NCBI GenBank assembly: GCA_031272455.1
Contig: JAISTS010000048.1
Coordinates: forward strand, 1-35,416
Direction: 5' to 3'
From: Tannerella sp.
GTDB lineage: Bacteria > Bacteroidota > Bacteroidia > Bacteroidales > Tannerellaceae
Length of the DNA stretch: 35,416 nt
The translations under genes and the position numbers were made by a program. Positions 14,317 to 35,405 of this stretch are shown here, piece after piece. Every line of letters begins with the position of its first letter. Position 1 is the stretch's first letter. The notes under the pieces are model-generated. The model saw nothing but the letters and a program-made list of their open reading frames with translations, was not told where the DNA came from and did not search any database.

Positions 14317-15651
14317 ATGTTACGAACACTCAGAATTACACTTACGACTGCATTGCTGGCATTGGCAACAACCGCAGTCAATGCTCAGGACTGGACAATG
14401 TTTCTCGGTCCCGACCGCAACAGCAAATCGCCCCAGAAAGGGCTTTTAAGAACATGGGCAGACGGCGAGCCTGCGGCGTTATGGTCTGTCGGTTTGGGCA
14501 GAGGCTATGGCGGTCCTGTAGTCAAAAACGGCAAAGTCTATCTGCTCGACCGTGACGATGAAAAGGGCGATATAATGCGCTGCTTCGACCTTGCAAGCGG
14601 CGATGAACTATGGCAGTTCGCATACGATTCACCCGGCGAAGTTCCTTTTCCCGGCTCGCGAAGCGTCCCTGCGGTCGATGACAGGTATGTCTATTCCTGC
14701 GGTACCTACGGCGACCTGTATTGTTTCGACCTGAACAGCCATCAGCCCGTTTGGAAAAAGAACATCTGGACTGACTTCGGCGGCGGCGAAAGGCTGCCCG
14801 TATGGGCTATCTCGCAATGTCCAACCATTTATGGCGAACTGCTTATCATCTCGTCGCAAGCGCCTGACGCCGGAGTAGTGGCTTACAACCGCAATACCGG
14901 CGAGGTGGTCTGGAAAACGCCAAATCTCGGCAACGAAAACTATGCCAGCCCGACAGTGCTTAAAATTCACGGCGAAGACCAGGTCGTGATGGTCAATTCG
15001 TCCACCAATCCGTTTGCCAACCCCAACGCGCCTGCAACCAAAGGCAAGGTGGTGGGCTTAGACCCCATGACCGGCGCCGAACTGTGGCGATACGACAACT
15101 GGGAATGTCATATTACCTGCGCCCCGCCCACTCTTGCGGATGACAACAAGTTGCTGATAGTAGGCGGTTACGAGCGGGGAGCGACTTTGATACAGATAAA
15201 TAAAGCGGCAGACGGCAAGTTCAGCGTTGCCGAACTGTTCACTACCACCGATTTTGGCGACCAGACCAAATCGGCGCTCTACCACAACGGCTGTTTCTAC
15301 GCTATGTATCGCACCAATCAGAAACGCGACGGCATGGTGTGCATGGATATCAACGGCAAATTGCTGTGGAAAACCGGCAACAATCCTAATTTCGACCGTG
15401 GCAGTATGATTCTTGCCGACGGTTTAATCCTCGCCACCGACGGTATGAAAACCCTCTACCTGATAGAGCCGGACGCGACCGGCTTCAAGCCCATTTCAAA
15501 AGCAAACGTACTGTCGGAAGGCGGCGCTTCGACCGGCGGTATGTCGGCGATGGGCGGCAACACCCAGAACTGGGCGGCAATAGCCCTTGCCGACGGCAAA
15601 CTATTAGTTCGCGACCAGGCTAAAATGGTTTGCGTAAAGGTCGTGAAATGA
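14317..15651 (+). CDS. Secreted PQQ-like beta-propeller protein (propeller 1)
   Basis: A 444-residue secreted protein: signal peptide 1-24 (cleavage after VNAQ), then a PQQ-like (BamB/quinoprotein-type) propeller. The opening MFLGPDRNSKSPQKGLL is the entry motif of this family. Blade motifs of the type x-D-x-x-[TS]G-x-x-x-W recur, for example CFDLASGDELW, AYNRNTGEVVW and GLDPMTGAELW. No haem motif and no quinoprotein alcohol dehydrogenase active site is recognisable, so binding of real PQQ is doubtful. It resembles propellers 2 and 3 downstream (same entry motif and length), so they are probably paralogues. It is separated from them by the GH51 gene. It may bind protein partners or act as a redox or sensory subunit of the locus. 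Confidence 0.88.
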   Translation: MLRTLRITLTTALLALATTAVNAQDWTMFLGPDRNSKSPQKGLLRTWADGEPAALWSVGLGRGYGGPVVKNGKVYLLDRDDEKGDIMRCFDLASGDELWQFAYDSPGEVPFPGSRSVPAVDDRYVYSCGTYGDLYCFDLNSHQPVWKKNIWTDFGGGERLPVWAISQCPTIYGELLIISSQAPDAGVVAYNRNTGEVVWKTPNLGNENYASPTVLKIHGEDQVVMVNSSTNPFANPNAPATKGKVVGLDPMTGAELWRYDNWECHITCAPPTLADDNKLLIVGGYERGATLIQINKAADGKFSVAELFTTTDFGDQTKSALYHNGCFYAMYRTNQKRDGMVCMDINGKLLWKTGNNPNFDRGSMILADGLILATDGMKTLYLIEPDATGFKPISKANVLSEGGASTGGMSAMGGNTQNWAAIALADGKLLVRDQAKMVCVKVVK

Positions 15652-15724
15652 ACGTACCGCAACGTTTTTGATTGCCCTGAAACAAAAATTTATGCTTTCA
15701 TGCTGCTTATTTTAAAACTTTATG

Positions 15725-17286: not shown

Positions 17287-17340
17287 AAAACGTAAGGAAA
17301 TGATACTAAATACAATAATTGCTTATTAAAACGGACGAAT

Positions 17341-18549
17341 ATGAAGAATATTTTTGTACTTTTATTGCTTTGCGCAAGTTGCACGCAGGTCGCTATTAAC
17401 GAAAATTCGCAGTGGCGCGGCGCCGACCGTTCGGGGTTTTACAAGGAGACGGGCTTACTGAAAGAGTGGCCAGCTGACGGACCGCAAATGCTGTGGAGCA
17501 TCGACGGGCTGGGCGAAGGCTATACCTCTGTCGCCGCCGCCAACGACAAGATCTACATTACCGGTATGATCGACAGCACCGGCTATCTGTATATCATTGA
17601 TACGCAGGGCAATCTGCTGCAAAAGAAGGAGTATGGCTTTGAGTGGAACACCAACTTCAACGGGGCGCGCTCGACGGTTTGCGTCAACGACGGCAGGCTG
17701 TACATCTTTTCGGGTCGGGGCGTGCTCTACTGCTTCGACGAACCGACGCTCGACCTGCTCTGGTCGAAGGATATACAAACGGACTTCGACGGCACAAACC
17801 TGATGTTCGGGATGACGGAATCGCCTCTTATCGTGGGCGAGACGCTATACCTGACCCCCGGCGGCAAGGAAAACAATATGGTGGCGCTCAACAAAGCTAC
17901 GGGCGAACTGATATGGTCGTCAACGGGCATCGGCAAGCCATCAACCTACTGTTCGCCGCAGTATATCAACGATTTGAAGACCCCGTTAGTGGCTACTTGC
18001 ATCGACAGCAGCCTTGTGGTGTTCAACGCCTCGACGGGCGAGAAGCTGTGGGATGTCGAGCAAAAAAGCCCGCACGGACACAATCCCAACACTCCGATAT
18101 ATGAGAAAGGGCTACTGTTCTGCGTGTCGGGCGGCGGCTTCGGCTCAGTGCAATACCGCCTCAATCAGGACGGTACGATAGCCGAAAAGACATGGACCAA
18201 CGAGATGGACAGCAAGCACGGAGCGGCGGTCAAAGTGGGCGATTACGTTTACGGCTCGGGCGAGAGAAACCGCTACTGGTACTGCATCGACTGGCGCACG
18301 GGCGAGACGAAATATAAGGATAACGCCATAGGCGTGGGCAATATCATCGCCGCCGACGGGATGCTGTATTGTTACAGCGACAAGGGCGAACTCGCTCTCG
18401 TTGAGGCTACTCCCGAAAAGTTCAATATCAAGGGGCAGATGAAAATCACGCTCGGCACCAACCAGCACTGGGCGCATCCCGTGATATATAAGGGCGTGCT
18501 CTACCTGCGTCACGGCGATACCTTGATGGCTTTCGATATTAAGGGATAA
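17341..18549 (+). CDS. PQQ-like beta-propeller lipoprotein (propeller 2)
   Basis: A 402-residue lipoprotein: short signal with lipobox LCASC and the lipidated Cys at residue 14. The mature part starts with the family entry motif WRGADRSGFYKETGLL and is followed by repeated blades such as ALNKATGELIW, VFNASTGEKLW and CIDWRTGET. It is the most planctomycete/verrucomicrobia-like of the propellers in wording of the entry motif (family knowledge from memory). It probably faces the periplasm, or the cell surface if exported by the lipoprotein pathway. It begins the tightly packed part of the locus; no promoter is obvious in the 54 bases before it, so it may be transcribed from the GH51 promoter or from a promoter I cannot see. 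Confidence 0.88.
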   Translation: MKNIFVLLLLCASCTQVAINENSQWRGADRSGFYKETGLLKEWPADGPQMLWSIDGLGEGYTSVAAANDKIYITGMIDSTGYLYIIDTQGNLLQKKEYGFEWNTNFNGARSTVCVNDGRLYIFSGRGVLYCFDEPTLDLLWSKDIQTDFDGTNLMFGMTESPLIVGETLYLTPGGKENNMVALNKATGELIWSSTGIGKPSTYCSPQYINDLKTPLVATCIDSSLVVFNASTGEKLWDVEQKSPHGHNPNTPIYEKGLLFCVSGGGFGSVQYRLNQDGTIAEKTWTNEMDSKHGAAVKVGDYVYGSGERNRYWYCIDWRTGETKYKDNAIGVGNIIAADGMLYCYSDKGELALVEATPEKFNIKGQMKITLGTNQHWAHPVIYKGVLYLRHGDTLMAFDIKG

Positions 18550-18567
18550 AATTAAAATAACAGGATT

Positions 18568-19824
18568 ATGTCAAAAAGATTATTGTTTATTGCGTGCTTT
18601 CTGCTGCCGTTGTTGGTTGAGGCGCAGGACTGGGCACAGTGGGGCGGCGCAAACCGCGATGCCGTCGTCAAAGCAACCAATCTCAATTTGGACTGGACGG
18701 ATTCCAAGCCTGCGCTGTTGTGGACATTCCGTCAAGCCGGCGCTGGCTATTCAAGCCCGTCGATATCCGGCACAACGCTATATTGCCAGGGCGCTGCCAA
18801 CGGCAAGGACTTTGCTTTCGCCATTGACACCAAAACGGGCGCTTTGAAGTGGAAACAGGATCTTGGCGCCGAGTATGTTCAGGATCGCGGCAACGGACCT
18901 CGCGGCGCAGTAACCGTTGATGGCGACAAGCTGTATCTTATTCGCGGCGGCGGTCAGATACACTGCATCCAAGCAGCCGACGGCAAGATGCTGTGGCAAA
19001 AGGATTTCACCTCAGATTTTGGCGGCGAGTTGCAGTCGCGCTGGGGTTTCAGCGAATCGCCTTTGGTTGACGGCAACCTCGTCGTCTGCACCCCCGGCGG
19101 CAACAGCGGCACACTGGCGGCGCTCGACAAAAACACGGGCGCAGTCGTCTGGCGTTCAAAGGAATGGACTGATATTGCCGGATATTCGTCGCCCATAGTG
19201 GCTGTCGTTGACGGCGTGAAGCAGATCATCCAGATAGCCAAAAGCGGCGTGGCGGGAGTGTCGGTCAACGACGGCAAACTGCTGTGGAAAGCCGATGTAG
19301 CAGGCAACAAGACGGCGGTCATCCCTTCCCCGATCTATTCGGATAAGGATCATATCGTATTCGTAACGTCGGGCTATGGCGCAGGTTGTGCGGGAGTGAA
19401 ACTCACCAAGTCGGGCGATGTGTTCAAAGCCGAAACGCTTTACGAGAACAAAAACATGACGAACCATCACGGCGGCGTCGTGCTTGTAGGCGATAATATC
19501 TATGGCTTTTCGGACACGGGCGGCTGGACCTGCCAGAGCCTGAAATCGGGCGAGGTGGTATGGAAAGAACGTCCGCGCGAGCCGGGCAAAGGCGCCGTTA
19601 TCTGCGTCAACAATCGCCTACTCTGCCTGAGCGAACGGACGGGAACGATTACCCTTGCCTCTGCCACAACAGATGGATGGAAAGAGTCGGGTAATTTGGA
19701 AATCCCCGAAAGGACGAAAATTGAGACAACGGATAATATGGTATGGACGCATCCGGTCGTCGCCGACAATAAACTTTATATGCGCGACCACGACTTGCTG
19801 TTCTGCTTCGATTTGAAAAAATAA
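18568..19824 (+). CDS. Secreted PQQ-like beta-propeller protein (propeller 3)
   Basis: A 418-residue protein with a cleavable signal peptide (1-19, ending VEAQ). It has the entry motif WAQWGGANRDAVVK and blades AIDTKTGALKW, ALDKNTGAVVW, SVNDGKLLW and SLKSGEVVW. It has no lipobox, unlike propeller 2, which it follows after 18 bases. It shares more wording with propeller 2 than with propellers 4-6 (FGFSESPLV/WGFSESPLV region, TPGG motif, HHGG/KHGA segment), so these two look like a recent duplication with different anchoring. The likely role is an envelope component of the same complex. Confidence 0.87.
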   Translation: MSKRLLFIACFLLPLLVEAQDWAQWGGANRDAVVKATNLNLDWTDSKPALLWTFRQAGAGYSSPSISGTTLYCQGAANGKDFAFAIDTKTGALKWKQDLGAEYVQDRGNGPRGAVTVDGDKLYLIRGGGQIHCIQAADGKMLWQKDFTSDFGGELQSRWGFSESPLVDGNLVVCTPGGNSGTLAALDKNTGAVVWRSKEWTDIAGYSSPIVAVVDGVKQIIQIAKSGVAGVSVNDGKLLWKADVAGNKTAVIPSPIYSDKDHIVFVTSGYGAGCAGVKLTKSGDVFKAETLYENKNMTNHHGGVVLVGDNIYGFSDTGGWTCQSLKSGEVVWKERPREPGKGAVICVNNRLLCLSERTGTITLASATTDGWKESGNLEIPERTKIETTDNMVWTHPVVADNKLYMRDHDLLFCFDLKK

Positions 19825-19851
19825 ACGTTCGCGAATAGAACGTCAACAGGC

Positions 19852-21270
19852 ATGCGTAAAAAACTTACCATAATAACAGCCTCTGTAATAGTCGTTTACA
19901 CGGCAATTATTGTGGCGTGGCATTTATATGCGCCGTCGCGACAGTTTGCGTTGCAGGTTCCGGGCGCCGATAACCGTCCGCCCGAATCAGCCCGTAAAGC
20001 CGACGATGTGCGTATAGGCGAGTTTTTTATGCGATACGAAACTGAGACAAGCTCATTGACCGGCAAATGGACGTGCTTTCGGGGTAACGATATGTCGAAC
20101 ATCATCCATACGAGCGACAAGATAGCTTACAGCGGCGACGATTATGCCGAAATCTGGGGAGTAACTACGGGCGAAGGGCATGCTGCGCCGGTGATATACA
20201 ACGGAATGGTCTATTTTCTGGATTACGACGAGACGCTCAGTTCGGATATGCTGCGCTGTTTTTCGTTGGAAACGGGCAAGGAGCAGTGGCGACGCTGGTA
20301 TCGCGTCCCGATGAAGCGTAATCACGGCTTTTCGCGTACGGTGCCGGTCGTGTCCGACGATTATATCATCACCCTCGGACCGCAGGGGCATTTGATGTGC
20401 TGTCATCCAGTGACGGGCGACTTGAAATGGACGCACGATCTGCAAAGCGAATACCAAACCGAAGTGCCGTTCTGGTACACCGGTCAGTGTCCGCGCGTTG
20501 ACGACGGGATACTTATTGTCGCTCCGGCAGGCGACGAAACGCTGCTGGCGGGCATCGACTGCAATACCGGCGAGACGGTCTGGCAAACGCCCAACACGCC
20601 GAAGTTCAAGATGTCGCACTCGTCTGTAACGCCAATGACCATTCACGGCAAGAAGACCTACGTCTATGCCGGCATCGGCGGCGTTTGCGGCATATCCGCC
20701 GAACCGTCCGACCGCGGCACGCTGTTATGGCATCAGACCAAATGGCAGCCTTCGGTCATCGCGCCTTCGCCACTGCATCTGTCGGGAGGTAACATCTTCC
20801 TCGTCGCGGGATACGGCGCTGGTGGAGCGTTGATGCGGGTGGATCTCGCAGGCAATAAATGGACGGCGGTGATTGTCGAACAGTATAAGGCAAACGAAGG
20901 CTTGTCGAGCGAACAGCAGACGCCAATACTTTATAATAACTTCATTTATACTGTATTACCGAAGGACGGCGGCAGTCAGCGCGGCAAATTGGTGGTCTAT
21001 GCGCCGACGGATCTGCACAATCCCGTCTGGTCGTCGGGCGCCGATGAAAGGTTTGGTCTGGGACCGTACGTCATCATCAACGACCGCATTTTTGTGCTAA
21101 AAGAAGACGGCGAGCTGTATGTTTATAAAATCGAGAACTCGCGCAGCCTGCTATTGGAGCGCAAACAGCGTATCATGGATGGCGTTGACGCCTGGGGATC
21201 GATGGCTTATGCCGACGGTATGCTCCTCGTGCGCGATGCCAATAACGTTAAATGTTTAAAGATAGGATAA
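19852..21270 (+). CDS. Membrane-anchored PQQ-like beta-propeller protein (propeller 4)
   Basis: A 472-residue protein with one N-terminal membrane anchor (about residues 5-26, no cleavage motif) and a ~40-residue linker before the propeller. Blades include CFSLETGKEQW, CCHPVTGDLKW and GIDCNTGETVW. The neighbouring cysteines (residues 183-184) lie in a blade and not in the adjacent-disulfide context of quinoprotein alcohol dehydrogenases. The propeller faces the periplasm. The gene lies 27 bases after propeller 3 and 17 bases before the Tat-type NHL propeller. Confidence 0.86.
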   Translation: MRKKLTIITASVIVVYTAIIVAWHLYAPSRQFALQVPGADNRPPESARKADDVRIGEFFMRYETETSSLTGKWTCFRGNDMSNIIHTSDKIAYSGDDYAEIWGVTTGEGHAAPVIYNGMVYFLDYDETLSSDMLRCFSLETGKEQWRRWYRVPMKRNHGFSRTVPVVSDDYIITLGPQGHLMCCHPVTGDLKWTHDLQSEYQTEVPFWYTGQCPRVDDGILIVAPAGDETLLAGIDCNTGETVWQTPNTPKFKMSHSSVTPMTIHGKKTYVYAGIGGVCGISAEPSDRGTLLWHQTKWQPSVIAPSPLHLSGGNIFLVAGYGAGGALMRVDLAGNKWTAVIVEQYKANEGLSSEQQTPILYNNFIYTVLPKDGGSQRGKLVVYAPTDLHNPVWSSGADERFGLGPYVIINDRIFVLKEDGELYVYKIENSRSLLLERKQRIMDGVDAWGSMAYADGMLLVRDANNVKCLKIG

Positions 21271-21287
21271 CAAAATAATAAAGCAAA

Positions 21288-22274
21288 ATGGAAAATATCT
21301 CACGTAAAAAGTTTCTGCGTACATTCGGTACGTTGCTTGCAGGCGGAGGTGTTGCCGGTGTAACGGGAGTGGTTGCAAGCAAGGGATTTGCACCCGTCAG
21401 CCACGCCGAAGCTGAGATAGACGAAGCCGCTGCATACATATCGCCTTACCGCCGGATCGCCGATTTTGAAGTCGATGGCGCTATCGAAGCCTTCGACGAA
21501 TACGGGGGTAAACTGTATGTGGCGACTACCGGAATTATCTCGACGACAGACAGTTACGGCAAGTTGCTGTCGTCGTTTGCCTCGACAGATGTCCCTGTTC
21601 GCGATATGGAGGTTGATGAGGCGGGAATTTGGCTCTTGCATCCCAAAGCCGTCAGCCTGTATTCGTTCGACGGCGTTCGCGTTCGCGGATGGGAGGCTTG
21701 CAGCGAGTTGTCGGACTACTGCGCTTTTGCGCTTGCGGGCGATTTTGTCTATGTTACCGATCGGGAACAAAAGAATATCGTCAAATATACCCGCGAGGGC
21801 GGCTTGGTAAAGTTTATCGACAGTCCTAACCGTTTTATCATCCCCAGCCGCACTTTCGGCATCAGTTATGCCGCCGGAATGCTCTACTGTTCCAATTCGG
21901 GCAGGCATCAGATTGAGAAATTCACGCTCGACGGCGAATATGCGGGCTGTTTTGGGGCGCCGGGAAGCAAGCCGGGTGCGTTTTGCGGTTGCTGCAATCC
22001 CGTTCATCTCACCTGCACCGAGACGGGCGAAATCATCACTTCGGAAAAAGGCATCCCGCGCATCAGTTGTTACAGCGCCGATGGCGTCTTTCGCAGTATC
22101 CTTCTCGACGGCAAAGCCTTGGGCGGCGGCTTCACGGCTTACGAAGCCAAAGTGTCGGGCGACAGGATTTTTGCGGCGGGCAAAAACAAGGTAACTTATT
22201 ACAGATACGACTCCCAGCTTGCGGCAGTTGGCGCATGCGCCGATTGCGGGGTCGATTGCGGACTCAGGACTTAA
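21288..22274 (+). CDS. Tat-type NHL-like beta-propeller with CGCCNPVH motif
   Basis: A 328-residue protein. The N-terminus has a Tat-like signal, SRKKFLRTFG (residues 5-14), with the twin-arginine pair replaced by Arg-Lys, then a hydrophobic stretch (15-31). The rest reads as an NHL-type six-bladed propeller rather than a PQQ-like one. A striking CGCCNPVH (C233, C235, C236, H240) and a C-terminal CADCGVDCG (C317, C320, C324) are good candidates for binding a metal or an Fe-S centre, or for a disulfide. From memory, NHL proteins with a GCCNP motif occur next to NosR-like Fe-S genes in Planctomycetes and Verrucomicrobia too. Export through Tat would let it fold with its cofactor first. Function: inferred partner or electron carrier of the two genes that follow. 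Confidence 0.78.
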   Translation: MENISRKKFLRTFGTLLAGGGVAGVTGVVASKGFAPVSHAEAEIDEAAAYISPYRRIADFEVDGAIEAFDEYGGKLYVATTGIISTTDSYGKLLSSFASTDVPVRDMEVDEAGIWLLHPKAVSLYSFDGVRVRGWEACSELSDYCAFALAGDFVYVTDREQKNIVKYTREGGLVKFIDSPNRFIIPSRTFGISYAAGMLYCSNSGRHQIEKFTLDGEYAGCFGAPGSKPGAFCGCCNPVHLTCTETGEIITSEKGIPRISCYSADGVFRSILLDGKALGGGFTAYEAKVSGDRIFAAGKNKVTYYRYDSQLAAVGACADCGVDCGLRT

Positions 22275-22285
22275 CCATATATAAT

Positions 22286-22840
22286 ATGTATAGTAAAATA
22301 GACAGGAAGCGTTTTTTGAAACTGTGCGGCTCGGCGGTGGCGGGAGCGGCGGTGGTGTCGCTGACAGGACTTGCCGCCAAGCGGATGTACGGGCGCAAGG
22401 GCGATGTGTTTTGGCAGATCGACCCGTCGAAATGCACTTTCTGCGGACGCTGCGCCACCGACTGCGTGCTGACCGTCTCGGCTGTAAGATGTATCCACGC
22501 CCATCGCGTATGCGGCTATTGCGACCTGTGCGGAGGCTATTACCGCACTAACGTCAAAGACCTGAACACTGCCGCCGAGAATATGATGTGTCCGACGGGC
22601 GCCATCGAACGCAAGTATGTCGAAGACCCGTATTTTGAATACACCATCGACGAGAGCCTGTGCAACGGCTGCGGCAAATGCGCCAAGGGCTGCAACTCCT
22701 TTGGCAACGGCTCGCTCTACCTGCAAGTCAAGCAGGAGCTGTGCAAGAACTGCAACGAATGTAAAATCTCGAAAGTCTGTCCGTCGGGCGCACTTACGCG
22801 CGTTACGGCAGATCGGGTTTATATGTTGAAAGACGGATGA
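22286..22840 (+). CDS. Tat-type polyferredoxin, about four [4Fe-4S] clusters
   Basis: A 184-residue Fe-S protein. The signal DRKRFLKLCG (residues 6-15) is a Tat motif with Arg-Lys instead of Arg-Arg, followed by a hydrophobic stretch (16-31). Cysteine sets are C50-C53-C56-C60, C69/C76-C79-C82 with C102, C126-C129-C132-C136, and C153-C156-C159-C165. This resembles the FdhB/HybA/NrfC-type electron-transfer subunits with four cubanes, without their usual C-terminal anchor. It should lie on the outer face of the inner membrane. It starts 11 bases after the NHL gene and is followed by the NosR-like membrane protein, its likely electron partner. The ATG at 22286 is chosen because it begins the signal; a longer upstream extension has shadow composition. 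Confidence 0.88.
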   Translation: MYSKIDRKRFLKLCGSAVAGAAVVSLTGLAAKRMYGRKGDVFWQIDPSKCTFCGRCATDCVLTVSAVRCIHAHRVCGYCDLCGGYYRTNVKDLNTAAENMMCPTGAIERKYVEDPYFEYTIDESLCNGCGKCAKGCNSFGNGSLYLQVKQELCKNCNECKISKVCPSGALTRVTADRVYMLKDG

Positions 22841-22845
22841 TGGGG

Positions 22846-22873
22846 AATTAAAAATTAAGAATTGAAAATTAAG
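22846..22873 (+). repeat. Two abutting 14-bp AT-rich repeats before the NosR-like gene
   Basis: AATTAAAAATTAAG (22846-22859) and AATTGAAAATTAAG (22860-22873) match at 13 of 14 positions and end one base before the next ATG (22875). They fill most of the 34-base spacer. Similar AATTAAAAATTAAG repeats are common between Bacteroidetes genes. Confidence 0.7.
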
Positions 22874-22874
22874 A

Positions 22875-25941: not shown

Positions 25942-25958
25942 AACGCAATATTAACCGT

Positions 25959-28397: not shown

Positions 28398-29349
28398 AGC
28401 AATAGAAGCGCACGAGGGCGAAACCCTGATTGAAGTGGCGCGCCGAGCGGGGATTGATATTCCGTCGCTGTGTTATGCACGCGACGCCAAACACAAATCG
28501 TCGTGTATGGTTTGCGCCGTAAAGGATTGTAAATCAGGAAATATAATGCCTTCGTGCACAACTTTGCCGACGGAGGGTATGACGATCGACACCGAAAGCG
28601 AAGAGGTGAAAAAGACGCGCATCCTGTCGCTCGAACTGCTGCTGAGCGACCATCGCGCTGACTGCGAAGCGCCCTGTTCGATGGTATGCCCCGCCGGATT
28701 GGATATTGAGCGGATGTTGGGATTTTACGACGCCGGAGATTATGCTGCGGCGGTCGCGCTTATCGCGTCGGTTTTTGCGCTTCCGGAAATTGCCTGCGAC
28801 GACTGCAAAGCGCCATGCGAAAAAGCCTGCCGACGCGGAACGCTCGATGAGGCTGTTTCTATTCGCGAGATAATCAGGGAAATAGTTCTCAATAACGGCG
28901 AAAAGCCCATTGCCGCAAAGCATTTTGAAAACACGGCAAAGGACAAAAACCTCTTTCAATCGCGCTTGGGAAGATTCACGGACGCGGAAAAAGACGGTCT
29001 GACGGCAGGCGTCGATACCCGTTCGCGCTGCCTGCATTGCGCCTGTTCGGGACGGCAAAAATGCCGTTTGCGGACATTCTCGACGGCGGGAGGCATCAAA
29101 CGTCCGCGCTATCAGGCATCGTCGGTTTTACAGTTGACTAAAACGCATATCAACAGCAACTTATGGTTCGAGCCGGCAAAATGTATCCGTTGCGGACTGT
29201 GCGTTTACAACAGCGATAACGGCTTCACTTTCAAGGGCAGAGGGTTCAATATGGAAGTGATATTGCCGGACGAAAATAAAGCCAACGTCAGCGACAGGCT
29301 TGCGGAGTTGTGTCCTACGGGGGCGATTTATTTACAGAGTAGCAAGTAG
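28375..29349 (+). CDS. NuoG/HydA-N-terminus-like Fe-S protein without catalytic domain
   Basis: A 324-residue cytoplasmic polyferredoxin. An N-terminal plant-type [2Fe-2S] domain has C33, C44, C47 and C61. It is followed by a GltD-like N-terminal Fe-S segment (C97, C101, C105 in CEAPCSMVCPAGLDI, and C141-C144-C148-C152 in the CxxPCE.ACRRG segment). A C-terminal part has CIRCGLC and CPTGAI. NuoG and hydrogenase HydA share such an electron-entry half, but both then carry a catalytic domain. No H-cluster or molybdopterin domain is present here or next door. The start overlaps the fusion gene by 23 bases, so the two are tightly coupled. The likely role is to take electrons from the NADH module and hand them to a membrane or soluble acceptor. 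Confidence 0.88.
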   Translation: MTITINNKAIEAHEGETLIEVARRAGIDIPSLCYARDAKHKSSCMVCAVKDCKSGNIMPSCTTLPTEGMTIDTESEEVKKTRILSLELLLSDHRADCEAPCSMVCPAGLDIERMLGFYDAGDYAAAVALIASVFALPEIACDDCKAPCEKACRRGTLDEAVSIREIIREIVLNNGEKPIAAKHFENTAKDKNLFQSRLGRFTDAEKDGLTAGVDTRSRCLHCACSGRQKCRLRTFSTAGGIKRPRYQASSVLQLTKTHINSNLWFEPAKCIRCGLCVYNSDNGFTFKGRGFNMEVILPDENKANVSDRLAELCPTGAIYLQSSK

Positions 29350-29370
29350 TTAGTAGTAAGTAGATAGTAG
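29338..29370 (+). repeat. AGTAG-type short repeat
   Basis: Seven near-copies of a TAG/AGTAG unit run across the stop codon of the Fe-S gene and into the spacer. The sequence is 33 bases, almost only A, G and T. It resembles the AGTAGTTAGTAG-like simple repeats seen between Bacteroidetes genes and may vary in copy number. Confidence 0.6.
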
Positions 29371-29378
29371 AAAATTAT

Positions 29379-30515
29379 ATGAGACGGTTAGGGATTTGTT
29401 TGTTGGTTTTTATTGGGATGTCCTGCGGGAAAACGGGCGGCGGTTCGGCGGGTAGCGGCGACGATTGGTGCATTTTTCGCGGCGACCCGGGATTGAGCGG
29501 CTACTCGAAAATGAAATTGCCCGACAATCTGCAATTGCTTTGGACTCACAAAAGCGATTCGCGGACATCGTCGTCGCCCATAATTTACAATGGCACAGTC
29601 TATTGGATCGACAAACGCGGGAAAATTTTCGGGGTGAACACAGCAGGCGAACTGACTTTTACTTACGATTTCGCAACTGCGGTCGAGGCAAGTCCAATGA
29701 TTTCGGATTCAACGCTTTACATTGGTCGAATCGACGGATTTATGAGCGCCCTGTCATTAACATCAAAAGACACTTTGTGGAATTTTGAAACTTGGGGACA
29801 AATTTCGGCGTCGCCCAATATCGGCGTTTTTGAAGGCAGGGAAGCCGTAATTTTCGGAAGCTACGACAACTTTCTTTATTGTTTGGACAAAAAGACAGGA
29901 GAATTGATAAATAGTTTTGAATCTGGATATTATATCAACGGCGCTGTGTCGGTTACGGATAATTATTTCGTTTCGGGCGGATGTGACGCCTGGCTGAAAG
30001 TGATCGACGGCGAAACTGGAACAACCACCGACTCGCTTGAATTAGAAACGTATATCCCCGCTTCGCCCGCCATTGTCGGAAACGACTGCTACATCGCCGA
30101 TCATTCGGGAAATATATACGCTATGACGCTGAATAAAGGGAAAATAAGCGATTTCAGGAAGATGATTGCGGCAACCGACGATAGCGGAACATTCGTATCC
30201 GTGCCTGCGGTCTCTTCAACAACGCTTTATATCATTTCGGACGACCGACATCTGTACGCTATCGACCGTAAAACGGGCGAAATCCGCTGGAAATACCTGC
30301 AAAAAGGCGGTTCGGGCGAAAGTTCGCCGCTTGTTTGCCGCGACAAAGTCATCTCCTGCACAAAGTCGGGCGTCGTTTCGGCGCTCTCGGCTGACAGAGG
30401 CGAGCTGCTTACAGAATACGATACCGGAGAACAAATCACCGCCTCGCCCGCAGTTTCCGGCGGTCGTTTCTATATCCTTACTGCTAAGGGGACGCTGTTT
30501 TGTTTTGGCGAATAA
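29379..30515 (+). CDS. PQQ-like beta-propeller lipoprotein (propeller 6)
   Basis: A 378-residue lipoprotein: signal with lipobox GMSC (lipidated Cys at residue 16), a Gly/Ser-rich stretch, and then a PQQ-like propeller. Blades read GVNTAGELTF, CLDKKTGELINS, VIDGETGTTTDS and AIDRKTGEIRW; several have lost the terminal Trp, so this copy is more diverged and closer to BamB than propellers 1-3. BamB itself is part of the outer-membrane protein assembly machine, but no BamA or other Bam gene is near, so I do not assign that role. It sits between the cytoplasmic Fe-S module (29-base gap) and the ABC transporter (14-base gap). Some lines of this gene are visibly AT-richer than the rest. Confidence 0.85.
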   Translation: MRRLGICLLVFIGMSCGKTGGGSAGSGDDWCIFRGDPGLSGYSKMKLPDNLQLLWTHKSDSRTSSSPIIYNGTVYWIDKRGKIFGVNTAGELTFTYDFATAVEASPMISDSTLYIGRIDGFMSALSLTSKDTLWNFETWGQISASPNIGVFEGREAVIFGSYDNFLYCLDKKTGELINSFESGYYINGAVSVTDNYFVSGGCDAWLKVIDGETGTTTDSLELETYIPASPAIVGNDCYIADHSGNIYAMTLNKGKISDFRKMIAATDDSGTFVSVPAVSSTTLYIISDDRHLYAIDRKTGEIRWKYLQKGGSGESSPLVCRDKVISCTKSGVVSALSADRGELLTEYDTGEQITASPAVSGGRFYILTAKGTLFCFGE

Positions 30516-30529
30516 TAAAAACTAAAAAT

Positions 30530-31204
30530 ATGATACAACTCACTGACATAAAAAAATCTTTCCCTGACGGCGAAAACAAACGCAACGAAGTATTGCGAGG
30601 GGTGAATATGACCGTTGCCAAAGGCGAATTTGTCGCCATTACCGGCGAATCGGGATCGGGTAAAACTACGCTGCTGAATATTCTCGGCACGATAATTGTA
30701 CCCGACAGCGGGGCATATATGCTTGATAACAAGACGATTTTCGGCTCAGACAGTAAACCTGTCGATACTGCTGACATCCGCAACCGTCTGATTGGATTTG
30801 TGTTTCAGGAACACCGCCTGATGCCGCAATACACCATCCTGCAAAATATCCTGTTGCCGACGCTTGCCGGTCAGGTGAAAACGACACCGGAACAGGTACA
30901 ATATGCCGAATACCTGATGGATATGACAGAGATCTCGGTGTTGGCTAATCGCCTTCCTGCGACAGTTTCGGGCGGGGAAGCAAGCCGCGCAGCGCTTTGC
31001 AGAGCGCTAATAATGAAGCCGTTAGTCCTGCTTGCCGACGAGCCGACCGGTCAGCTTGACAGTCGCAACGCACATAACACAGTGGCATTGCTGAAAAAAG
31101 TCAGTCGCGAACTTGGAGCTACTGTCCTGATGGTCAGCCATTCGCATGAGACGACAGCCGAAGCGGAACGTATCTTAACCCTCAAAGACGGTTTATTGTC
31201 ATGA
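30530..31204 (+). CDS. ABC transporter ATPase, LolD/MacB type
   Basis: A 224-residue nucleotide-binding subunit with a complete set of motifs: Walker A GESGSGKT (39-46), Q-loop in FVFQEHRLMPQ, signature VSGGE (near 147-151), Walker B LLADEPTG (about 168-175), and the H-loop in MVSHSHET. The sequence class is that of LolD, MacB N-terminal domain and FtsE, which power FtsX-fold permeases that move substances from the inner membrane without a classical channel. The ATG at 30530 is chosen because MIQL begins the family; a frame opening at 30500 would add ten unlikely residues. The stop overlaps the permease start by 4 bases. Confidence 0.92.
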   Translation: MIQLTDIKKSFPDGENKRNEVLRGVNMTVAKGEFVAITGESGSGKTTLLNILGTIIVPDSGAYMLDNKTIFGSDSKPVDTADIRNRLIGFVFQEHRLMPQYTILQNILLPTLAGQVKTTPEQVQYAEYLMDMTEISVLANRLPATVSGGEASRAALCRALIMKPLVLLADEPTGQLDSRNAHNTVALLKKVSRELGATVLMVSHSHETTAEAERILTLKDGLLS

Positions 31205-34140
31205 ATTTCAATAAGTTAATAAGATCGAATATAAAGCACCACAGTCGCTATTACAGACTGATCATGGCGGCTACGGTGATCATGGTCGCCGTCATCACCG
31301 GCAGCCTGATAATCGGCGATTCCGTGCGTAACACGCTTATAAACAGGGTTAAACAGCGACTTGGCGACACCGAAACAATCGTATTTTCAAAAAACGCATT
31401 CTTTTCAGACAGTCTTGCGCAAACATCTGTTTTTCAAGGCAATGCACGAGGAATGCTTCTTACCGACGGCTTCATTTCGGATAACGGCAAATTGATTCCT
31501 GTGATGGTTTGGGGCGTGGATGATGTGCCATTCGGCAGCGCCCGGATCAACAGAACGCTGGCTGATGAACTAACGCTTTCGGATCGAACAGCTGCAAATA
31601 AAGATCTGATACTCAGGCTTCCTGCAACTGGAATGGTGCCATCCGGTTCGCTGTTCGTAACCGACAACTACACAACATCCATTCGCCTCGCCTGCGCAGG
31701 AATTATCGGTACGGACGAGGGAGGCAACATCAGCCTCAAAAACGAACAAATCATCCCCTGCAATATCTTCGTAAATCGCCTCGAATTGGCGTCAACACTG
31801 AAAATCGAAGGGAAAATCAATCTCATACTGACGCAGACAATAATCAGTGAAGATGATATAGAAACGGTCTGGAAGCCCTCATTATCAGGAATTAAAATCA
31901 AAAATAATGAATTGCTGTCCGACAGGGTTTTCCTTCAAAACGATCTCGTCGCGACTGTTTGCCACGACAACAGCGACGTAAACCGCGTGTTTTCTTATAT
32001 GGCTAATAGTCTGACAGTCATCGGAAAGAGCGACACGATCCCCTATTCGTTTATCACAGCAGCCGATAGTTACAGGGGGCAAAAACTTGAAAATAATGAC
32101 GTTATACTGTCTGATTATTCCGCAACGAGATTAACGGCAAAGGTCGGCGACAGCATCAGGATAACGTTTTTCGTTTCCGGCGACCTTAAAACGCTGCACG
32201 AAGAGTCTGTCAATCTGCGTGTTGTCGGCATAGCGCCGATAGGTGAACTGTGTGCCGACCCAACGCTAAGCGCCGACTTTCCCGGACTGTCGGATGTGGA
32301 AAACTGCACCGATTGGGACAGCGATTTGCCGATTGACATGTCGCGCATCACGAAAGAGGACGAAGATTATTGGGATCAATACCGCTCAACGCCCAAAGCG
32401 ATAGTGGCTTACAGCGCCGTAGCGACGAAATGGAGCAATGCCTACGGCTGCGCCACTTCGCTGCGTTTCACACAAGATCCTGATTTAAGCGGACTGAAAC
32501 CGTCAATGACCGGCATTCAAGTCATCCATCCGCGGGAAGCAGGTCTGACGGCAGCGCAAAACAGCATCGACTTCACCTCGCTTTTCCTGTCGCTCGGATT
32601 TTTCATCCTGATCGCTGCCGCGCTGCTAATGCTCGTGCCGCTCTCGGAGATGATTTTCGTCCGCCGAGAGGAACTCTCGCTGCTGTCGGCAACGGGATAC
32701 GGTAAACATAAGATAATAAGTATGTTATGGAGAGAGTCCGTCCTGACTGTCATCGTCGCGTCAATCCTCGGCATCATCGCAGGAATTGCATATACATTGC
32801 TGATAATAACGCTGTTAAATACACTGTGGCAAGGAGCTGTTCATACCGTCGGTTTCACGTTCCATACCAATCTAACTACGCTTATCAGCGGATTGGTTGC
32901 AGGCATAGCTATTGCGCTGATAATATTGAGATTATCCATTGTTAAAGCGGTTAAAAAGATAGATAAACCGCAAAAAATCACGAATCGCGTGCATAAACAG
33001 GCAAGCAATTTCAGTATTAATCAGCTGATAATAGCCGATTTACGCTCAAACTCAAAACGTGCATGGCTGTCGTTTGCGGCGCTGGCGTCGGGTGTGCTGA
33101 TCGTCTTTGCCGTGGGGCTGAACCGCCCCGGCTATACCGACAGTTCGCAGTTGCAGAGCGCGACCGGCGGCTATGCGTTGTGGTGCGAAACGAGCATCCC
33201 CGTCTATCACAACCTCGCGACAACGGAAGGACGTAAAAAACTGTCACTTAGTGATCTACCAGCAAGTACGGAAATACTGCAACTCTTACGTTTCAGTGCC
33301 GATGATGCCAGCTGCTTGAACCTCAATAAAGTAACGCAACCGACAGTGTTGGGCGTCGATATGCAGGCATTGAAATCGGGCAGCCTCAAAGTGAGCCAAA
33401 GCATTTATCCTGAGGATGTCTCGCCGTTCGATATGCTGTGTTCGGAAGCGCATGCCGTTTATCCTGTGATGGTTGACGAGACCGTCCTCCTTTGGGGCTT
33501 GCAGATGAAACTCGGCGACACGTTGAGTTACGAAGCAAGCAACGGGCGAACGGTCAGCCTTCTGCTTGCCGCCACGCTTCATAACTCCATGTTTCAAGGC
33601 AATTTGTTGATGGATAGAAGTTTATTCAAAGACATCTGGAACGAAATCACCGGAAGCGAAATAGCGCTAATCAAAACATCCGGTTCACAGACGGAAATTA
33701 ACGAAGTCAAAACGCTGACGGAAAGGGCATTGAGCGAATATGGCGTGCGCGTCATGCCGACAGTGCAACGACTGCGGGAATTTAATTCCGTTACAGACAC
33801 CTATTTGACTATCTTTCTGGTTCTTGGCGGTTTCGGATTACTCATCGGCATTGCCGGTTTCATCATCGTTGTGCGCAAAGACCTTGCCTCGCGGAGCGCG
33901 CAGATAGCGATGATGAAGGCGCTCGGTTTCAGCGCAGAAAAACTCAAACAGCTGCTTGTAAAAGAAAGTCGTATTGTGCCCCTCGCGGCAATAGCAACCG
34001 GATTTGCCTTGTCGCTCATTGCTGTCATCGGCGGGCTGTCGGGCGTTACTCCGGAGATATGGCTTATGGCGCTGATATTCTTGCTGTTACTTGTTTTCGG
34101 AGTATTGTATTTCATTAATAGAGAAGTTGATAAGATATGA
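31201..34140 (+). CDS. Large FtsX/MacB-type ABC permease
   Basis: A 979-residue integral membrane permease with about eight membrane segments (near 19-38, 456-475, 513-540, 561-578, 622-640, 868-890, 925-945 and 953-972). The long periplasmic part after the first helix (about 40-455) resembles a MacB/LolC periplasmic core. A second periplasmic domain (about 641-867) follows. This makes a fused double FtsX unit on one chain, which fits a mechanotransmitter-type exporter of lipoproteins or lipid-linked molecules. It lacks the ATPase, which is encoded just upstream (4-base overlap). The glycosyltransferase starts at the stop (4-base overlap). Substrate unknown. Confidence 0.88.
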   Translation: MNFNKLIRSNIKHHSRYYRLIMAATVIMVAVITGSLIIGDSVRNTLINRVKQRLGDTETIVFSKNAFFSDSLAQTSVFQGNARGMLLTDGFISDNGKLIPVMVWGVDDVPFGSARINRTLADELTLSDRTAANKDLILRLPATGMVPSGSLFVTDNYTTSIRLACAGIIGTDEGGNISLKNEQIIPCNIFVNRLELASTLKIEGKINLILTQTIISEDDIETVWKPSLSGIKIKNNELLSDRVFLQNDLVATVCHDNSDVNRVFSYMANSLTVIGKSDTIPYSFITAADSYRGQKLENNDVILSDYSATRLTAKVGDSIRITFFVSGDLKTLHEESVNLRVVGIAPIGELCADPTLSADFPGLSDVENCTDWDSDLPIDMSRITKEDEDYWDQYRSTPKAIVAYSAVATKWSNAYGCATSLRFTQDPDLSGLKPSMTGIQVIHPREAGLTAAQNSIDFTSLFLSLGFFILIAAALLMLVPLSEMIFVRREELSLLSATGYGKHKIISMLWRESVLTVIVASILGIIAGIAYTLLIITLLNTLWQGAVHTVGFTFHTNLTTLISGLVAGIAIALIILRLSIVKAVKKIDKPQKITNRVHKQASNFSINQLIIADLRSNSKRAWLSFAALASGVLIVFAVGLNRPGYTDSSQLQSATGGYALWCETSIPVYHNLATTEGRKKLSLSDLPASTEILQLLRFSADDASCLNLNKVTQPTVLGVDMQALKSGSLKVSQSIYPEDVSPFDMLCSEAHAVYPVMVDETVLLWGLQMKLGDTLSYEASNGRTVSLLLAATLHNSMFQGNLLMDRSLFKDIWNEITGSEIALIKTSGSQTEINEVKTLTERALSEYGVRVMPTVQRLREFNSVTDTYLTIFLVLGGFGLLIGIAGFIIVVRKDLASRSAQIAMMKALGFSAEKLKQLLVKESRIVPLAAIATGFALSLIAVIGGLSGVTPEIWLMALIFLLLLVFGVLYFINREVDKI

Positions 34141-35405
34141 AGATATTGTTTATAGTTCCCGGGTCGGGCGACCCTTTCTATTGCGGCAATTGTTTTCGCG
34201 ACAACCTGCAAGCCAATGCTTTACGCAAAGCCGGGCACGAGGTCGTCGTTATGCCGCTTTATCTCCCGCTGAAAGATGAATCGTTTCGCGGCGATACGCC
34301 CTTGTTTTTCCCTGCCGTTTCGCTCTTTGTCGAGCGTAAATACTTCAAGTCGAAAACGATGCCCGTGTGGATGGAAAAACTGCTCAATTCCGACTGGTCG
34401 CTGAATATGGCTGCCTCGTTTTCCGGATCTACCTCGTCCGAAGGGCTGGAAGATATGACGCTGTCGATGATCAACGGCGACGACCGCATTTTCCTAAGAC
34501 ATGTCGCGACGATGATCGATTGGATCAAAAACCACGAACGCCCCGACCTGATACACCTGTCAAGCAGCCTCATCATCGGCATTGCCAAACTGATCAAACA
34601 GCACATCAATATACCTGTGGTCTGTTCGCTGCAAGACGAAGAAGTGTGGATCGACGCACTTGGAGATTTTGCCGACACGGCTTGGCAGAGCATCTGGGAC
34701 AATGCGAACTCCATCGACTGCTTTATCGCGTCCAGCGATTATTACCGGCAGTCGGTCTTGCGGCGCACATCGCAAATCAAGTGCATCGAAGTGGTGTATC
34801 CGGGAGTGAACCGGACGAAATATTTCTCCGAACATTATCCTTCCGAACCTGTCGTGGGCTTCTTTTATCGCATGAACCGGCTTAACGGGCTTCATATCCT
34901 CGCCGAAGCCTTTGTCAAACTGAAAGCCGAAGGACAGATCCCGAAACTCCGCTTGCGTATCGGCGGCGGCTATTCTGATACCGACAAAAAATTCCTGAAA
35001 AAGGTGCGTGCCGTGCTGGCGCCTTACGCCGCTGATGTGGACTGGATTGATGCTTACAGTTTGAGCGAACATGTTGATTTTTACCGAAATGTGTCGGTCG
35101 TTTGCGTGCCGATCACTTTTGACGAAGCCGTCGGGCTGTATGTCTGCGAGGCTTTTGCCGCAGGTCGTCCGGTAGTTGAACCTGCCACGGGTTCGTTTCC
35201 GGAAATCGTGGCTGACGGCGGCGTGCTTTATCAGCATAATGATAGCGACAGTCTTGCCGCCGCTCTACGTGAGATGCTGACAGCGAAAGGACTATGGACG
35301 AAATGCCGCGACAATGCCCTCAGACTGTCTCAGGAGCGATACGACGCTTCTGTTTTGGCGGATAATTTATTGCGAATTTATAATATGATCCTTACAGCAC
35401 AGTAA
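34137..35405 (+). CDS. Family 4 glycosyltransferase with N-terminal YCGNC motif
   Basis: A 422-residue retaining GT-B glycosyltransferase. The C-terminal half has the GT4 EX7E pair in DEAVGLYVCEAF (E330 and E338), the usual nucleotide-sugar binding region, and the GxPVV-type segment that follows. The N-terminus opens with a Rossmann strand, then FYCGNCFRDN (C16, C19), a two-cysteine motif that I recall from GT4 proteins encoded near ABC/FtsX genes in several phyla. There is no signal peptide or membrane segment, so the protein is cytosolic or membrane-associated. It is coupled to the permease gene by ATGA overlap, suggesting that the transferred sugar is attached to something this ABC unit exports. 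The gene ends 11 bases before the window edge. Confidence 0.9.
   Translation: MKILFIVPGSGDPFYCGNCFRDNLQANALRKAGHEVVVMPLYLPLKDESFRGDTPLFFPAVSLFVERKYFKSKTMPVWMEKLLNSDWSLNMAASFSGSTSSEGLEDMTLSMINGDDRIFLRHVATMIDWIKNHERPDLIHLSSSLIIGIAKLIKQHINIPVVCSLQDEEVWIDALGDFADTAWQSIWDNANSIDCFIASSDYYRQSVLRRTSQIKCIEVVYPGVNRTKYFSEHYPSEPVVGFFYRMNRLNGLHILAEAFVKLKAEGQIPKLRLRIGGGYSDTDKKFLKKVRAVLAPYAADVDWIDAYSLSEHVDFYRNVSVVCVPITFDEAVGLYVCEAFAAGRPVVEPATGSFPEIVADGGVLYQHNDSDSLAAALREMLTAKGLWTKCRDNALRLSQERYDASVLADNLLRIYNMILTAQ

What the first reader, a model, noticed from the sequence alone, without database searches (positions are those of the whole stretch)
14317..35405. Undescribed-looking envelope electron-transfer locus built from seven beta-propellers and a NADH-Fe-S module
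Six PQQ-like propellers, one NHL-type propeller, a Tat-type polyferredoxin, a NosR-like membrane protein, a NuoEF-like fusion, a catalytic-domain-free NuoG-N protein, an ABC/FtsX exporter and a GT4 are in one direction, with short gaps or overlaps from 17341 onward. I know of no named system with this set. A transmembrane electron-export pathway feeding propeller partners is a reasonable model, but the terminal acceptor and the purpose are unknown.
Basis: partly seen in the sequence, partly recalled or inferred. Interest (0 to 1): 0.85.

Follow-up and report, generated by a model that had tools for sequence, protein, structure and literature searches.

The report
Conserved Bacteroidales electron-transfer operon with propellers
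Gut and marine Bacteroidales share a conserved run of about eleven genes that looks like an undescribed machine for moving electrons between NADH/ferredoxin inside the cell and propeller-shaped proteins outside the inner membrane; what it acts on is still unknown.

Summary
From 17341 to 35405 thirteen genes run in one direction with gaps of 34 nt or less. The core (PQQ4-NHL-polyferredoxin-NosR/NapH-like-PQQ5-EF-G-PQQ6-ABC-FtsX, plus GT4) keeps its order at most readable junctions of 79 related loci, and largely in 18 loci of a divergent clade.

(2) G is an NfnA/StnC-type alpha subunit; a divergent-clade copy lacks the NAD(P)H domain, the window copy also the FAD domain: apparently an NADPH enzyme turned Fe-S wire beside a NapGH-like pair. 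(3) In 35 of 79 loci a terpenoid module with a DxDDT cyclase lies alongside; 14 of 15 genomes with a strong cyclase match carry this system, but the window genome shows none.

Best reading: a Bfu-type enzyme wired across the membrane to a periplasmic Fe-S/propeller head. Direction and substrate are unknown. GH51 (15700) is a passenger.

The parts
13300..14175 (+). secreted metallo-beta-lactamase-fold hydrolase (AidB-lactonase-like, below that family's cut-off); accessory, probable
   Evidence: Pfam PF00753; AidB 135.8 vs cut-off 360; homologues in 9 of 79 related loci, 7 of them between EF and G, and downstream of GT4 in L190, L196, L197
14317..15651 (+). PQQ1, secreted BamB/PQQ-like propeller; loosely linked accessory
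   Evidence: PF13360; best-match PQQ1 homologues in 5 of 79 loci, also L126 and L159
15700..17286 (+). GH51 alpha-L-arabinofuranosidase, probably a passenger
   Evidence: PF06964; NCBIfam ArfA 550.8 bits vs cut-off 625; no homologue labelled in 79 loci
17341..18549 (+). PQQ2, lipoprotein-like propeller (by eye), variable-number set upstream of core
   Evidence: PF13360; PQQ2-like best matches in 42 of 79 loci
18568..19824 (+). PQQ3, secreted propeller of the same variable set
   Evidence: PF13360; best matches in 5 of 79 loci
19852..21270 (+). PQQ4, membrane-anchored periplasmic 8-bladed BamB-like propeller; most conserved propeller, candidate active head
   Evidence: 97 of 472 positions invariant in both clades; AF2 pLDDT 89.7; BamB, YxaL, tetrathionate hydrolase folds
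21288..22274 (+). NHL, Tat-like 6-bladed NHL propeller with 9 conserved Cys (window clade)
22286..22840 (+). FDX, Tat-like periplasmic polyferredoxin, 17 Cys conserved at 0.99 or more in the window clade
   Evidence: PF12838; NapG-like but far below cut-off
22875..24164 (+). NosR/NapH-like membrane Fe-S protein (8 hydrophobic segments by hydropathy, two CxxxCP, two 4Fe-4S)
   Evidence: PF12801; NCBIfam NosR 60.5 bits, NapH subfamily 52.6
24157..25941 (+). PQQ5, membrane-anchored propeller
   Evidence: PF13360; follows NosR in 59 of 65 loci
25917..28397 (+). EF, BfuC-BfuB (HydC-HydB / StnA-StnB) fusion; start TTG 25917 or, more likely, ATG 25959
   Evidence: ligands of all tested clusters in 60 of 60 aligned rows
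28375..29349 (+). G, NfnA/StnC-type alpha subunit without FAD and NAD(P)H domains, Fe-S only
29379..30515 (+). PQQ6, lipoprotein-like propeller (by eye)
   Evidence: PF13570 and PF13360 above cut-off
30500..31204 (+). ABC ATPase, LolD/MacB-like (ATG start about 30530 more likely)
   Evidence: PF00005; LolD 184.5 bits vs cut-off 307.75
31201..34140 (+). duplicated FtsX-type permease
   Evidence: PF02687, two stretches
34137..35405 (+). GT4 glycosyltransferase
   Evidence: PF00534; a match in 13 of 20 named relatives, directly after FtsX or nearly so in 8 of 9 stretches read; beside PQQ6 in the divergent clade

Best explanation
The locus encodes one conserved transmembrane redox chain. In the cytoplasm EF (fused BfuC-BfuB) with G forms a Bfu-type NADH/ferredoxin core. 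G has lost the NADPH-reacting part of its NfnA/StnC relatives and acts as an Fe-S wire. The third electron route of the enzyme, instead of NADP, H2 or formate, is the NosR/NapH-like membrane protein, which passes electrons across the inner membrane to the Tat-exported polyferredoxin. That serves a periplasmic head made of the anchored propellers PQQ4 and PQQ5 and the Cys-rich NHL propeller, where the unknown substrate reacts. PQQ2/3/6 and the ABC-FtsX/GT4 genes deliver, export or modify that substrate. I think net flow is outward (a periplasmic reductase). Shown: gene identities, order, ligand conservation, domain loss. Inferred: complex formation, electron route, direction, roles of the propellers. 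In many relatives the substrate is probably linked to a terpenoid made by a neighbouring module; the window genome shows no such cyclase.
For: Order conserved in 79 loci and largely in 18 loci of a second clade at 25-35% NHL identity. EF ligands of BfuC [2Fe-2S], BfuB [2Fe-2S], three [4Fe-4S] and the linker site kept in 60 of 60 aligned rows, window included; best PDB relatives NfnB 9n5u, 9bov_B, HydB 7q4v, StnB 8oh5. Clusters B2-B5 separate bifurcating from non-bifurcating homologues (PMC9304861, section 5 part 1); StnABC shows the core accepting another alpha module (PMC10482914, passages). Window G matches 9bov_A 6-172 and then, weakly, 527-671; a divergent-clade G (L119) jumps from 287 to 467. 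FDX has an R[RK]x[FY] motif near the start of the open frame in 88 of 89 rows; TatC is in the genome. In 5 of 7 genomes whose locus is not followed by PQQ5-EF, an EF orthologue (53% identity or more; in G801 in two frames) lies elsewhere.
Against: No biochemistry, no expression data. Direction cannot be read from sequence. Contact between G and the NosR-like protein rests on gene order. EF is unlinked in several genomes; G167 has no full-length EF orthologue and the small G802 none; L129 (G167) lacks FDX and NosR beside NHL, L116 and L130 stop after NosR. Four window-clade loci with over 3 kb of room show no G after EF (L012, L015, L016, L056). A close relative carries an inserted block between EF and G (L189), and promoter-like matches exceed shuffles, so a single transcript is not assured. 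No terminal enzyme with a known cofactor is seen. The divergent-clade NHL has neither the Tat motif (0 of 19) nor seven of the nine Cys, so an Fe-S NHL is not general. Neither the NosR-like protein nor FDX has a solved relative beyond ferredoxin-type domains.
Confidence: 0.5

Rival explanations
1. Electron import: a periplasmic propeller oxidises a substrate (for example an alcohol or lactol to a lactone, then opened by the metallo-beta-lactamase-fold lactonase), and electrons run inward through polyferredoxin, NosR-like protein and G to make NADH and reduced ferredoxin.
For: Propellers are PQQ/BamB-type; a secreted lactonase-like hydrolase recurs in the loci; Bfu enzymes are described as reversible (PMC9304861, passages).
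Against: No propeller reaches the cut-off of a PQQ dehydrogenase family (TIGR03075: 23.9 to 55.8 bits vs 480.05). The PqqC search is uninformative because its control stayed silent.
Confidence: 0.2
2. Maturation system: the chain supplies reductant for assembling or repairing periplasmic or outer-membrane proteins, with BamB-like propellers as scaffolds and the LolD/FtsX-type transporter for lipoproteins, as NosR with NosDFY serves NosZ (recalled).
For: BamB is among the nearest folds of PQQ4; the ABC ATPase scores best against LolD, below its cut-off; no recognised catalytic cofactor.
Against: No client enzyme was seen conserved in the loci read; PQQ4 has 97 invariant positions in both clades including RNHG, WY-GQCP and MSH motifs, more like an active site than a scaffold, though residues 157-159 of RNHG lie in a low-confidence loop of the model.
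Confidence: 0.17
3. Dedicated terpenoid pathway: the whole operon exists to make, reduce, export and glycosylate a cyclised isoprenoid.
For: 35 of 79 loci hold the cyclase; 14 of 15 genomes with a strong cyclase match carry an NHL match.
Against: 62 of 76 genomes with an NHL match lack a strong cyclase match; 18 loci with 5 kb or more upstream of PQQ4 lack the cyclase in the stretch, though one of them, L031, has other module genes on the opposite strand; the window genome shows none at 85.5% completeness.
Confidence: 0.1
4. Neighbouring but unrelated genes that happen to lie together.
For: Families such as PQQ_2, ABC and GT4 are common.
Against: Conserved order in two deep clades, the divergent one spanning 13 families of the order in the EF tree, and presence of EF in 5 of 7 genomes where it is unlinked.
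Confidence: 0.03

Closest known systems
StnABC / Nfn-Bfu electron-bifurcating transhydrogenase (Sporomusa ovata, PMC10482914, passages seen)
   Same: Same bifurcating core (StnA-StnB equals EF) and an alpha subunit with the same N-terminal 2Fe-2S and GltD-N domains and, weakly matched, the C-terminal Fe-S domain
   Different: G lacks the FAD and NAD(P)H domains, so NADP cannot be the third substrate in the known way; core subunits are fused; membrane and periplasmic genes lie alongside
Mbh-Bfu and Nuo-Bfu membrane-bound Bfu complexes (PMC9304861, sections and passages seen)
   Same: Bfu core in one gene cluster with membrane subunits
   Different: No proton-pumping subunits in the window; the membrane partner is a NosR/NapH-like Fe-S protein with a Tat-like polyferredoxin
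NapGH / MauMN ferredoxin pairs
   Same: Tat-like polyferredoxin encoded next to a CxxxCP membrane Fe-S protein
   Different: Scores far below family cut-offs; donor side is a Bfu core rather than quinol (NapGH role recalled); partners are propellers
NosR
   Same: C-terminal membrane and Fe-S half aligns
   Different: Only positions 411-651 of 680 match; nothing matches the N-terminal part; no NosZ seen in the window
BamB and quinoprotein (PQQ) propellers
   Same: 8-bladed fold of PQQ4
   Different: Below cut-off of the curated BamB and PQQ dehydrogenase models; inner-membrane anchor on PQQ4 and PQQ5 (hydropathy)
Squalene-hopene cyclase (in relatives only)
   Same: SQHop N and C domains in the one copy scanned, DxDDT motif in 35 of 35 loci
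   Different: Hopene cyclase model 100.8 vs cut-off 431.1; encoded with a second short cyclase-like protein and a DUF116-polyprenyl synthase; four cyclase genomes of 96-99% completeness show no squalene synthase match

Membership tests
Bfu (HydABC-type) electron-bifurcating family | BfuB with NuoF domain, N-terminal Trx-like 2Fe-2S, C-terminal two 4Fe-4S; all cluster ligands (B2-B5) | tested here: met
   60 of 60 aligned rows keep every tested ligand; criterion from PMC9304861
Bfu (HydABC-type) electron-bifurcating family | BfuC (NuoE-like) 2Fe-2S | tested here: met
   PF01257; C112, C117, C154, C158 in 60 of 60 rows; fused to BfuB
Bfu (HydABC-type) electron-bifurcating family | BfuA homologue with at least a 2Fe-2S and a 4Fe-4S domain | tested here: met
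   G: PF13510, PF14691, PF13459; InterPro accessions themselves not run
Bfu (HydABC-type) electron-bifurcating family | coupled NADH / ferredoxin / third-substrate reaction | not testable with these tools
   needs purified protein
Stn / Nfn-Bfu transhydrogenase | GltD-like FAD and NAD(P)H domains in the alpha subunit | tested here: not met
   window G aligns to 9bov_A 6-172 then weakly 527-671; divergent-clade G of L119 lacks about 288-466
NapG/NapH | curated family score | tested here: not met
   NapG 26.7 vs 269; mauM_napG 25.1 vs 178.85; napH subfamily 52.6 vs 213.05
NosR | full-length NosR score | tested here: not met
   60.5 vs 1000 bits, only 411-651 of 680 matched
PQQ-dependent dehydrogenase | curated family score | tested here: not met
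   TIGR03075 at most 55.8 vs 480.05; TIGR03074 at most 22.3 vs 832.65
PQQ-dependent dehydrogenase | PQQ synthesis genes in the genome (PqqC) | tested here: inconclusive
   0 of 17 genomes, but no control genome rang
BamB | curated family score | tested here: not met
   TIGR03300 at most 90.9 vs 285.2
Complex I | proton-pumping membrane subunits in the cluster | tested here: not met
   none among the window genes scanned; rest of genome not searched
Tat-exported protein (NHL, FDX) | twin-arginine motif and a Tat translocase in the genome | tested here: inconclusive
   both window copies carry RK, not RR; relaxed motif in 75 of 77 (NHL) and 73 of 73 (FDX) window-clade rows, strict RR in 24 and 51, FDX of the divergent clade strict RR in 15 of 16; TatC present; export itself not shown
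LolD | curated family score | tested here: not met
   184.5 vs 307.75

The most novel reading that the evidence does not exclude
Electron bifurcation is used across a membrane: a Bfu core whose alpha subunit was stripped to an Fe-S wire drives electrons from NADH and ferredoxin through a NosR-like protein to a periplasmic Fe-S/propeller reductase. In many Bacteroidales this reductase works on a cyclised isoprenoid lipid made by the neighbouring DUF116-polyprenyl synthase, cyclase and radical SAM module, which is then exported and glycosylated: an unknown envelope lipid pathway powered by bifurcation.
Probability: 0.2. Interest if true: 0.92.

Novelty: new variant of a known kind. Interest (0 to 1): 0.74.

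Why it matters
The Bfu enzymes described in the paper sections I saw act on soluble third substrates or are predicted to pump protons (PMC9304861). A Bfu core coupled to a periplasmic polyferredoxin would be a new way to energise redox chemistry outside the inner membrane. It would occur in a major gut order: a PQQ4 homologue, 68% identical, is named from Parabacteroides distasonis (the rest of the locus was not checked there), and the locus is seen in isolates such as Mangrovibacterium marinum DSM 28823 and Parabacteroides sp. PF5-6. The link to a terpenoid module offers a concrete chemical handle (a lipid to look for).

Tried and rejected
Plain NuoEF/complex I reading: rejected because EF carries the extra N-terminal 2Fe-2S and C-terminal 4Fe-4S domains of HydB/StnB.

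PQQ enzymes: all six propellers score far below the PQQ dehydrogenase models; the genome-wide PqqC test was uninformative. Foldseek and VIA lists for PQQ4 show BamB, YxaL, tetrathionate hydrolase and (Foldseek) PQQ dehydrogenases, which does not settle a function; NHL gave only general NHL and WD-type folds and a few propeller enzymes. No Cys geometry could be measured because I had no model coordinates (one search found none in the box).

Terpenoid as the sole purpose: rejected, since 62 of 76 genomes with an NHL match lack a strong cyclase match. In L004, L012 and L016 the HK-LytTR pair sits directly before PQQ2 where other loci (e.g. L035, L055, L061) carry the terpenoid module.

Squalene as cyclase substrate: squalene/phytoene synthase family above cut-off in 9 of 15 cyclase genomes (16 searched with G000, which has neither), some at low scores; no match in G205 (99% complete), G016 (96%), G100 and G112 (98%), G137 (86%); a sub-cut-off match in G337. 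So not required, not excluded.

Distribution outside the order: at E 1e-50 or better only the own genome matched among 395 genomes of the phylum (of the 21 rows listed 6, own included, are of the same order). One named locus is titled Eubacteriales (L033); its EF groups inside the Bacteroidales rows, so probably a misbinned contig.

Number of FAD-domain losses in G: unresolved. L080 and L128 have short G but sit on long branches of the divergent clade. The missing NAD(P)H domain was shown by alignment for one divergent G only (L119); 12 divergent G frames of 511-574 aa agree in length. Window-clade exceptions in length: L005 (431 aa frame), L071 and L072 (877-896 aa, no FAD motif found, perhaps fused to the next propeller).

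GT4 against my reading: in G793 the match lies on another contig beside sugar genes, and 7 of 20 named genomes gave no match at E 1e-30.

Papers: searches found none describing this locus or the terpenoid module (search listings only, except PMC9304861: section 4 part 1, section 5 part 1 and passages; PMC10482914: abstract and passages; PMC11300592: term search, no hits). NosR, NapH, PQQ, propeller and periplasm do not occur in the main text of PMC9304861. The library lacks most subscription papers, so absence in print is not shown.

Rows dropped before counts: in the, 91 alignments one best open frame per locus, frames under 85% of the window protein left out, duplicates of one genome (e.g. 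L043 and L127) kept; two weak matches (G216, G369) of 17 left out to give 15; loci with under 600 nt of room left out of each junction count, 11 of 79 loci without a plus-strand PQQ4 not classed for the cyclase. In one search the tool kept 80 of 104 relatives (79 distinct loci; a few share a genome). One search did not search L078 (not held); loci L018, L019 and L029, which lack EF after PQQ5, were not followed.
Full report
What was checked. The window is a contig stretch of a draft genome (2.75 Mb, 85.5% complete). A same-family genome, G205, has a contig of the same length as Parabacteroides sp. PF5-6 (538413 bases), so the host is close to Parabacteroides. The NHL protein has no Pfam hit, but its model is an NHL-type propeller. 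From 17341 to 35405 the twelve junctions are between -25 and +34 nt. In a scan of 16800-35416, terminator-like sites are no more than in shuffles (23 against 23.9), but promoter-like ones are (33 against 17.7), so inner promoters are possible.

Conservation. A profile of the NHL protein found 79 distinct loci in named records, nearly all titled as Bacteroidales or their families: MAGs from insect gut (record names, partly recalled) and rumen, Parabacteroides, Alistipes, and marine genera. Junction counts, among loci with at least 600 nt of room: PQQ4-NHL 68 of 68, NHL-FDX 71 of 75, FDX-NosR 70 of 70, NosR-PQQ5 59 of 65, PQQ5-EF 49 of 52, EF-G 40 of 46, G-PQQ6 30 of 33, PQQ6-ABC 29 of 31, ABC-FtsX 20 of 20. 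In an even draw of 393 genomes of the order, 76 have an NHL match, 6 of them close (E under 1e-100). I fetched stretches for 20 of the 76. Two belong to the window clade; of the other 18, PQQ4 and NHL are together in 18, FDX is seen in 16, NosR in 17, PQQ5 and EF in 15, G in 14 (once on the other strand). In the ten downstream stretches of that clade the 3' end reads PQQ6-GT4-ABC-FtsX intact in five (L179, L180, L181, L184, L188), with one extra gene in L186 and several in L182, without GT4 in L183, without a recognised FtsX in L187, and is cut off in L185. The window clade reads PQQ6-ABC-FtsX-GT4. GT4 was found in 13 of 20 named genomes and follows FtsX in 8 of 9 stretches read; in G793 it lies elsewhere. 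Among seven genomes whose locus is not followed by PQQ5-EF, five have an EF orthologue elsewhere (in G801 in two frames; G803 has a second copy in its other locus, L056); G167 has only HydB-like matches of 48% or less and the small G802 none. At E 1e-50 no genome outside the order matched PQQ4 in the phylum draw.

The NADH side is a bifurcating-type core. EF is a NuoE-like domain, a second thioredoxin-like 2Fe-2S domain, NuoF and two C-terminal 4Fe-4S clusters, the plan of HydC-HydB or StnA-StnB. The best solved relatives are NfnB 9n5u (682 bits), 9bov_B (644), HydB 7q4v (619) and StnB 8oh5 (608). Every ligand position tested, six sets, is kept in 45 of 45 window-clade rows (window included) and 15 of 15 divergent rows. 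The Bfu paper states that non-bifurcating homologues lack clusters B2-B5 (PMC9304861 section 5 part 1). Bifurcation itself is inferred.

The alpha subunit was stripped. In StnC or NfnA-type subunits the 2Fe-2S and 4Fe-4S N-terminus is followed by FAD and NAD(P)H domains and then a C-terminal Fe-S domain. The divergent-clade G of L119 keeps the FAD-type fold, but its alignment jumps from residue 287 to 467 of 9bov_A (466 of 8oh5_C): the NAD(P)H domain is missing; 12 divergent G frames of 511-574 aa fit this in length. The window G jumps from 172 to 527, with a weak second stretch (E 0.0013): both domains are missing, while the Fe-S cysteines remain. The EF tree separates the two clades with 100/100 support. 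Two long-branched divergent members (L080, L128) also have short G, so the number of losses is open. The simplest reading is that the NADP function was given up and the subunit now relays electrons to another partner. The gene neighbour that could take them is the NosR/NapH-like protein with two CxxxCP motifs and two 4Fe-4S sites, whose fifteen Cys outside C56 are kept at 0.96 or more in both clades. This last step is inference from order.

The periplasmic side. FDX carries an R[RK]x[FY] motif in the first 90 residues of the open frame in 88 of 89 rows and 17 Cys at 0.99 or more in the window clade. The genome has TatC. The NHL protein of the window clade carries such a motif in 75 of 77 rows and nine Cys at 0.97 or more. 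In the divergent clade only the CC pair of CCNP stays and the Tat motif is absent (0 of 19). PQQ4 is the most constrained propeller, 97 of 472 positions invariant in both clades against 75 of 594 (PQQ5), 34 of 378 (PQQ6) and 20 of 328 (NHL). Its fold is BamB-like and also resembles tetrathionate hydrolase and PQQ dehydrogenases. I take PQQ4 as the likely site of chemistry; that is inference.

A terpenoid partner. In 35 of 79 loci a squalene-hopene-cyclase-like protein lies in the locus, with a radical SAM protein, a DUF116-polyprenyl synthase fusion and a short cyclase-like protein all on the plus strand in 28. The cyclase keeps the DxDDT motif in 35 of 35 loci. In 18 loci with at least 5 kb upstream of PQQ4 it is absent from the stretch, 15 are too short to tell, and 11 have no plus-strand PQQ4 and were not classed. 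In the 393-genome draw 15 genomes have a strong cyclase match (two weak ones left out) and 14 of these have an NHL match, where 2.9 are expected (hypergeometric 5e-10, which ignores relatedness). In the divergent clade the five-gene module was read away from the system in several genomes (L154, L155, L156, L158, L159, L160) but next to it in G257. The module therefore depends on, or shares use with, the redox system, while the redox system also lives without it, as in the window genome, where the cyclase searches were empty.

Accessories. A metallo-beta-lactamase-fold protein lies between EF and G in seven loci and next to the operon in others; the window has one at 13300. A major intrinsic protein, a CobW-type GTPase and a TonB receptor follow GT4 in some relatives. 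A histidine kinase and LytTR regulator precede or follow the operon in several loci. The GH51 gene in the window has no counterpart labelled in the 79 loci.

Verdict. A real, conserved, apparently undescribed system. It is best filed as a new variant of the Bfu family, with a periplasmic third-substrate branch. Direction, substrate and the role of the propellers remain to be shown.

Noticed in passing
L189 (G782) 4835-8936: In a close relative three open frames that look like a restriction-modification or DNA-methylase set (recognised by eye) sit between EF and G, interrupting the operon.
   Followed up: no
L181 (G268) 6201-11331: Rnf-type genes (RnfC by Pfam, a multi-4Fe-4S RnfB-like protein) lie directly beyond FtsX, another NADH/ferredoxin machine beside this system.
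   Followed up: partly
L190 8535-9692: A radical SAM protein and an MFS-like transporter (by eye) follow the metallo-beta-lactamase gene downstream of GT4 in a relative.
   Followed up: no
L196, L197, L193: GT4 is followed by a major intrinsic protein (Pfam for L196, by eye in the other two) and a CobW-type GTPase; CobW homologues were labelled in five genomes (L005/L196, L041, L044, L193, L197); meaning unknown.
   Followed up: partly
L034, L046, L053: Several genes of the locus are broken into two or three frames in three MAG contigs; probably sequencing or assembly error.
   Followed up: no
window 41-1461: Three small unassigned frames at the contig end beside tRNA-Gln (1794-1866); one has a weak match to a phage family of unknown function.
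   Followed up: partly
relatives, e.g. L035:4335-5903: DUF116 fused to a polyprenyl synthase, encoded with an HdrA-like Fe-S protein (by eye) and a NirJ/HpnH-like radical SAM protein: an unassigned isoprenoid module in its own right.
   Followed up: partly
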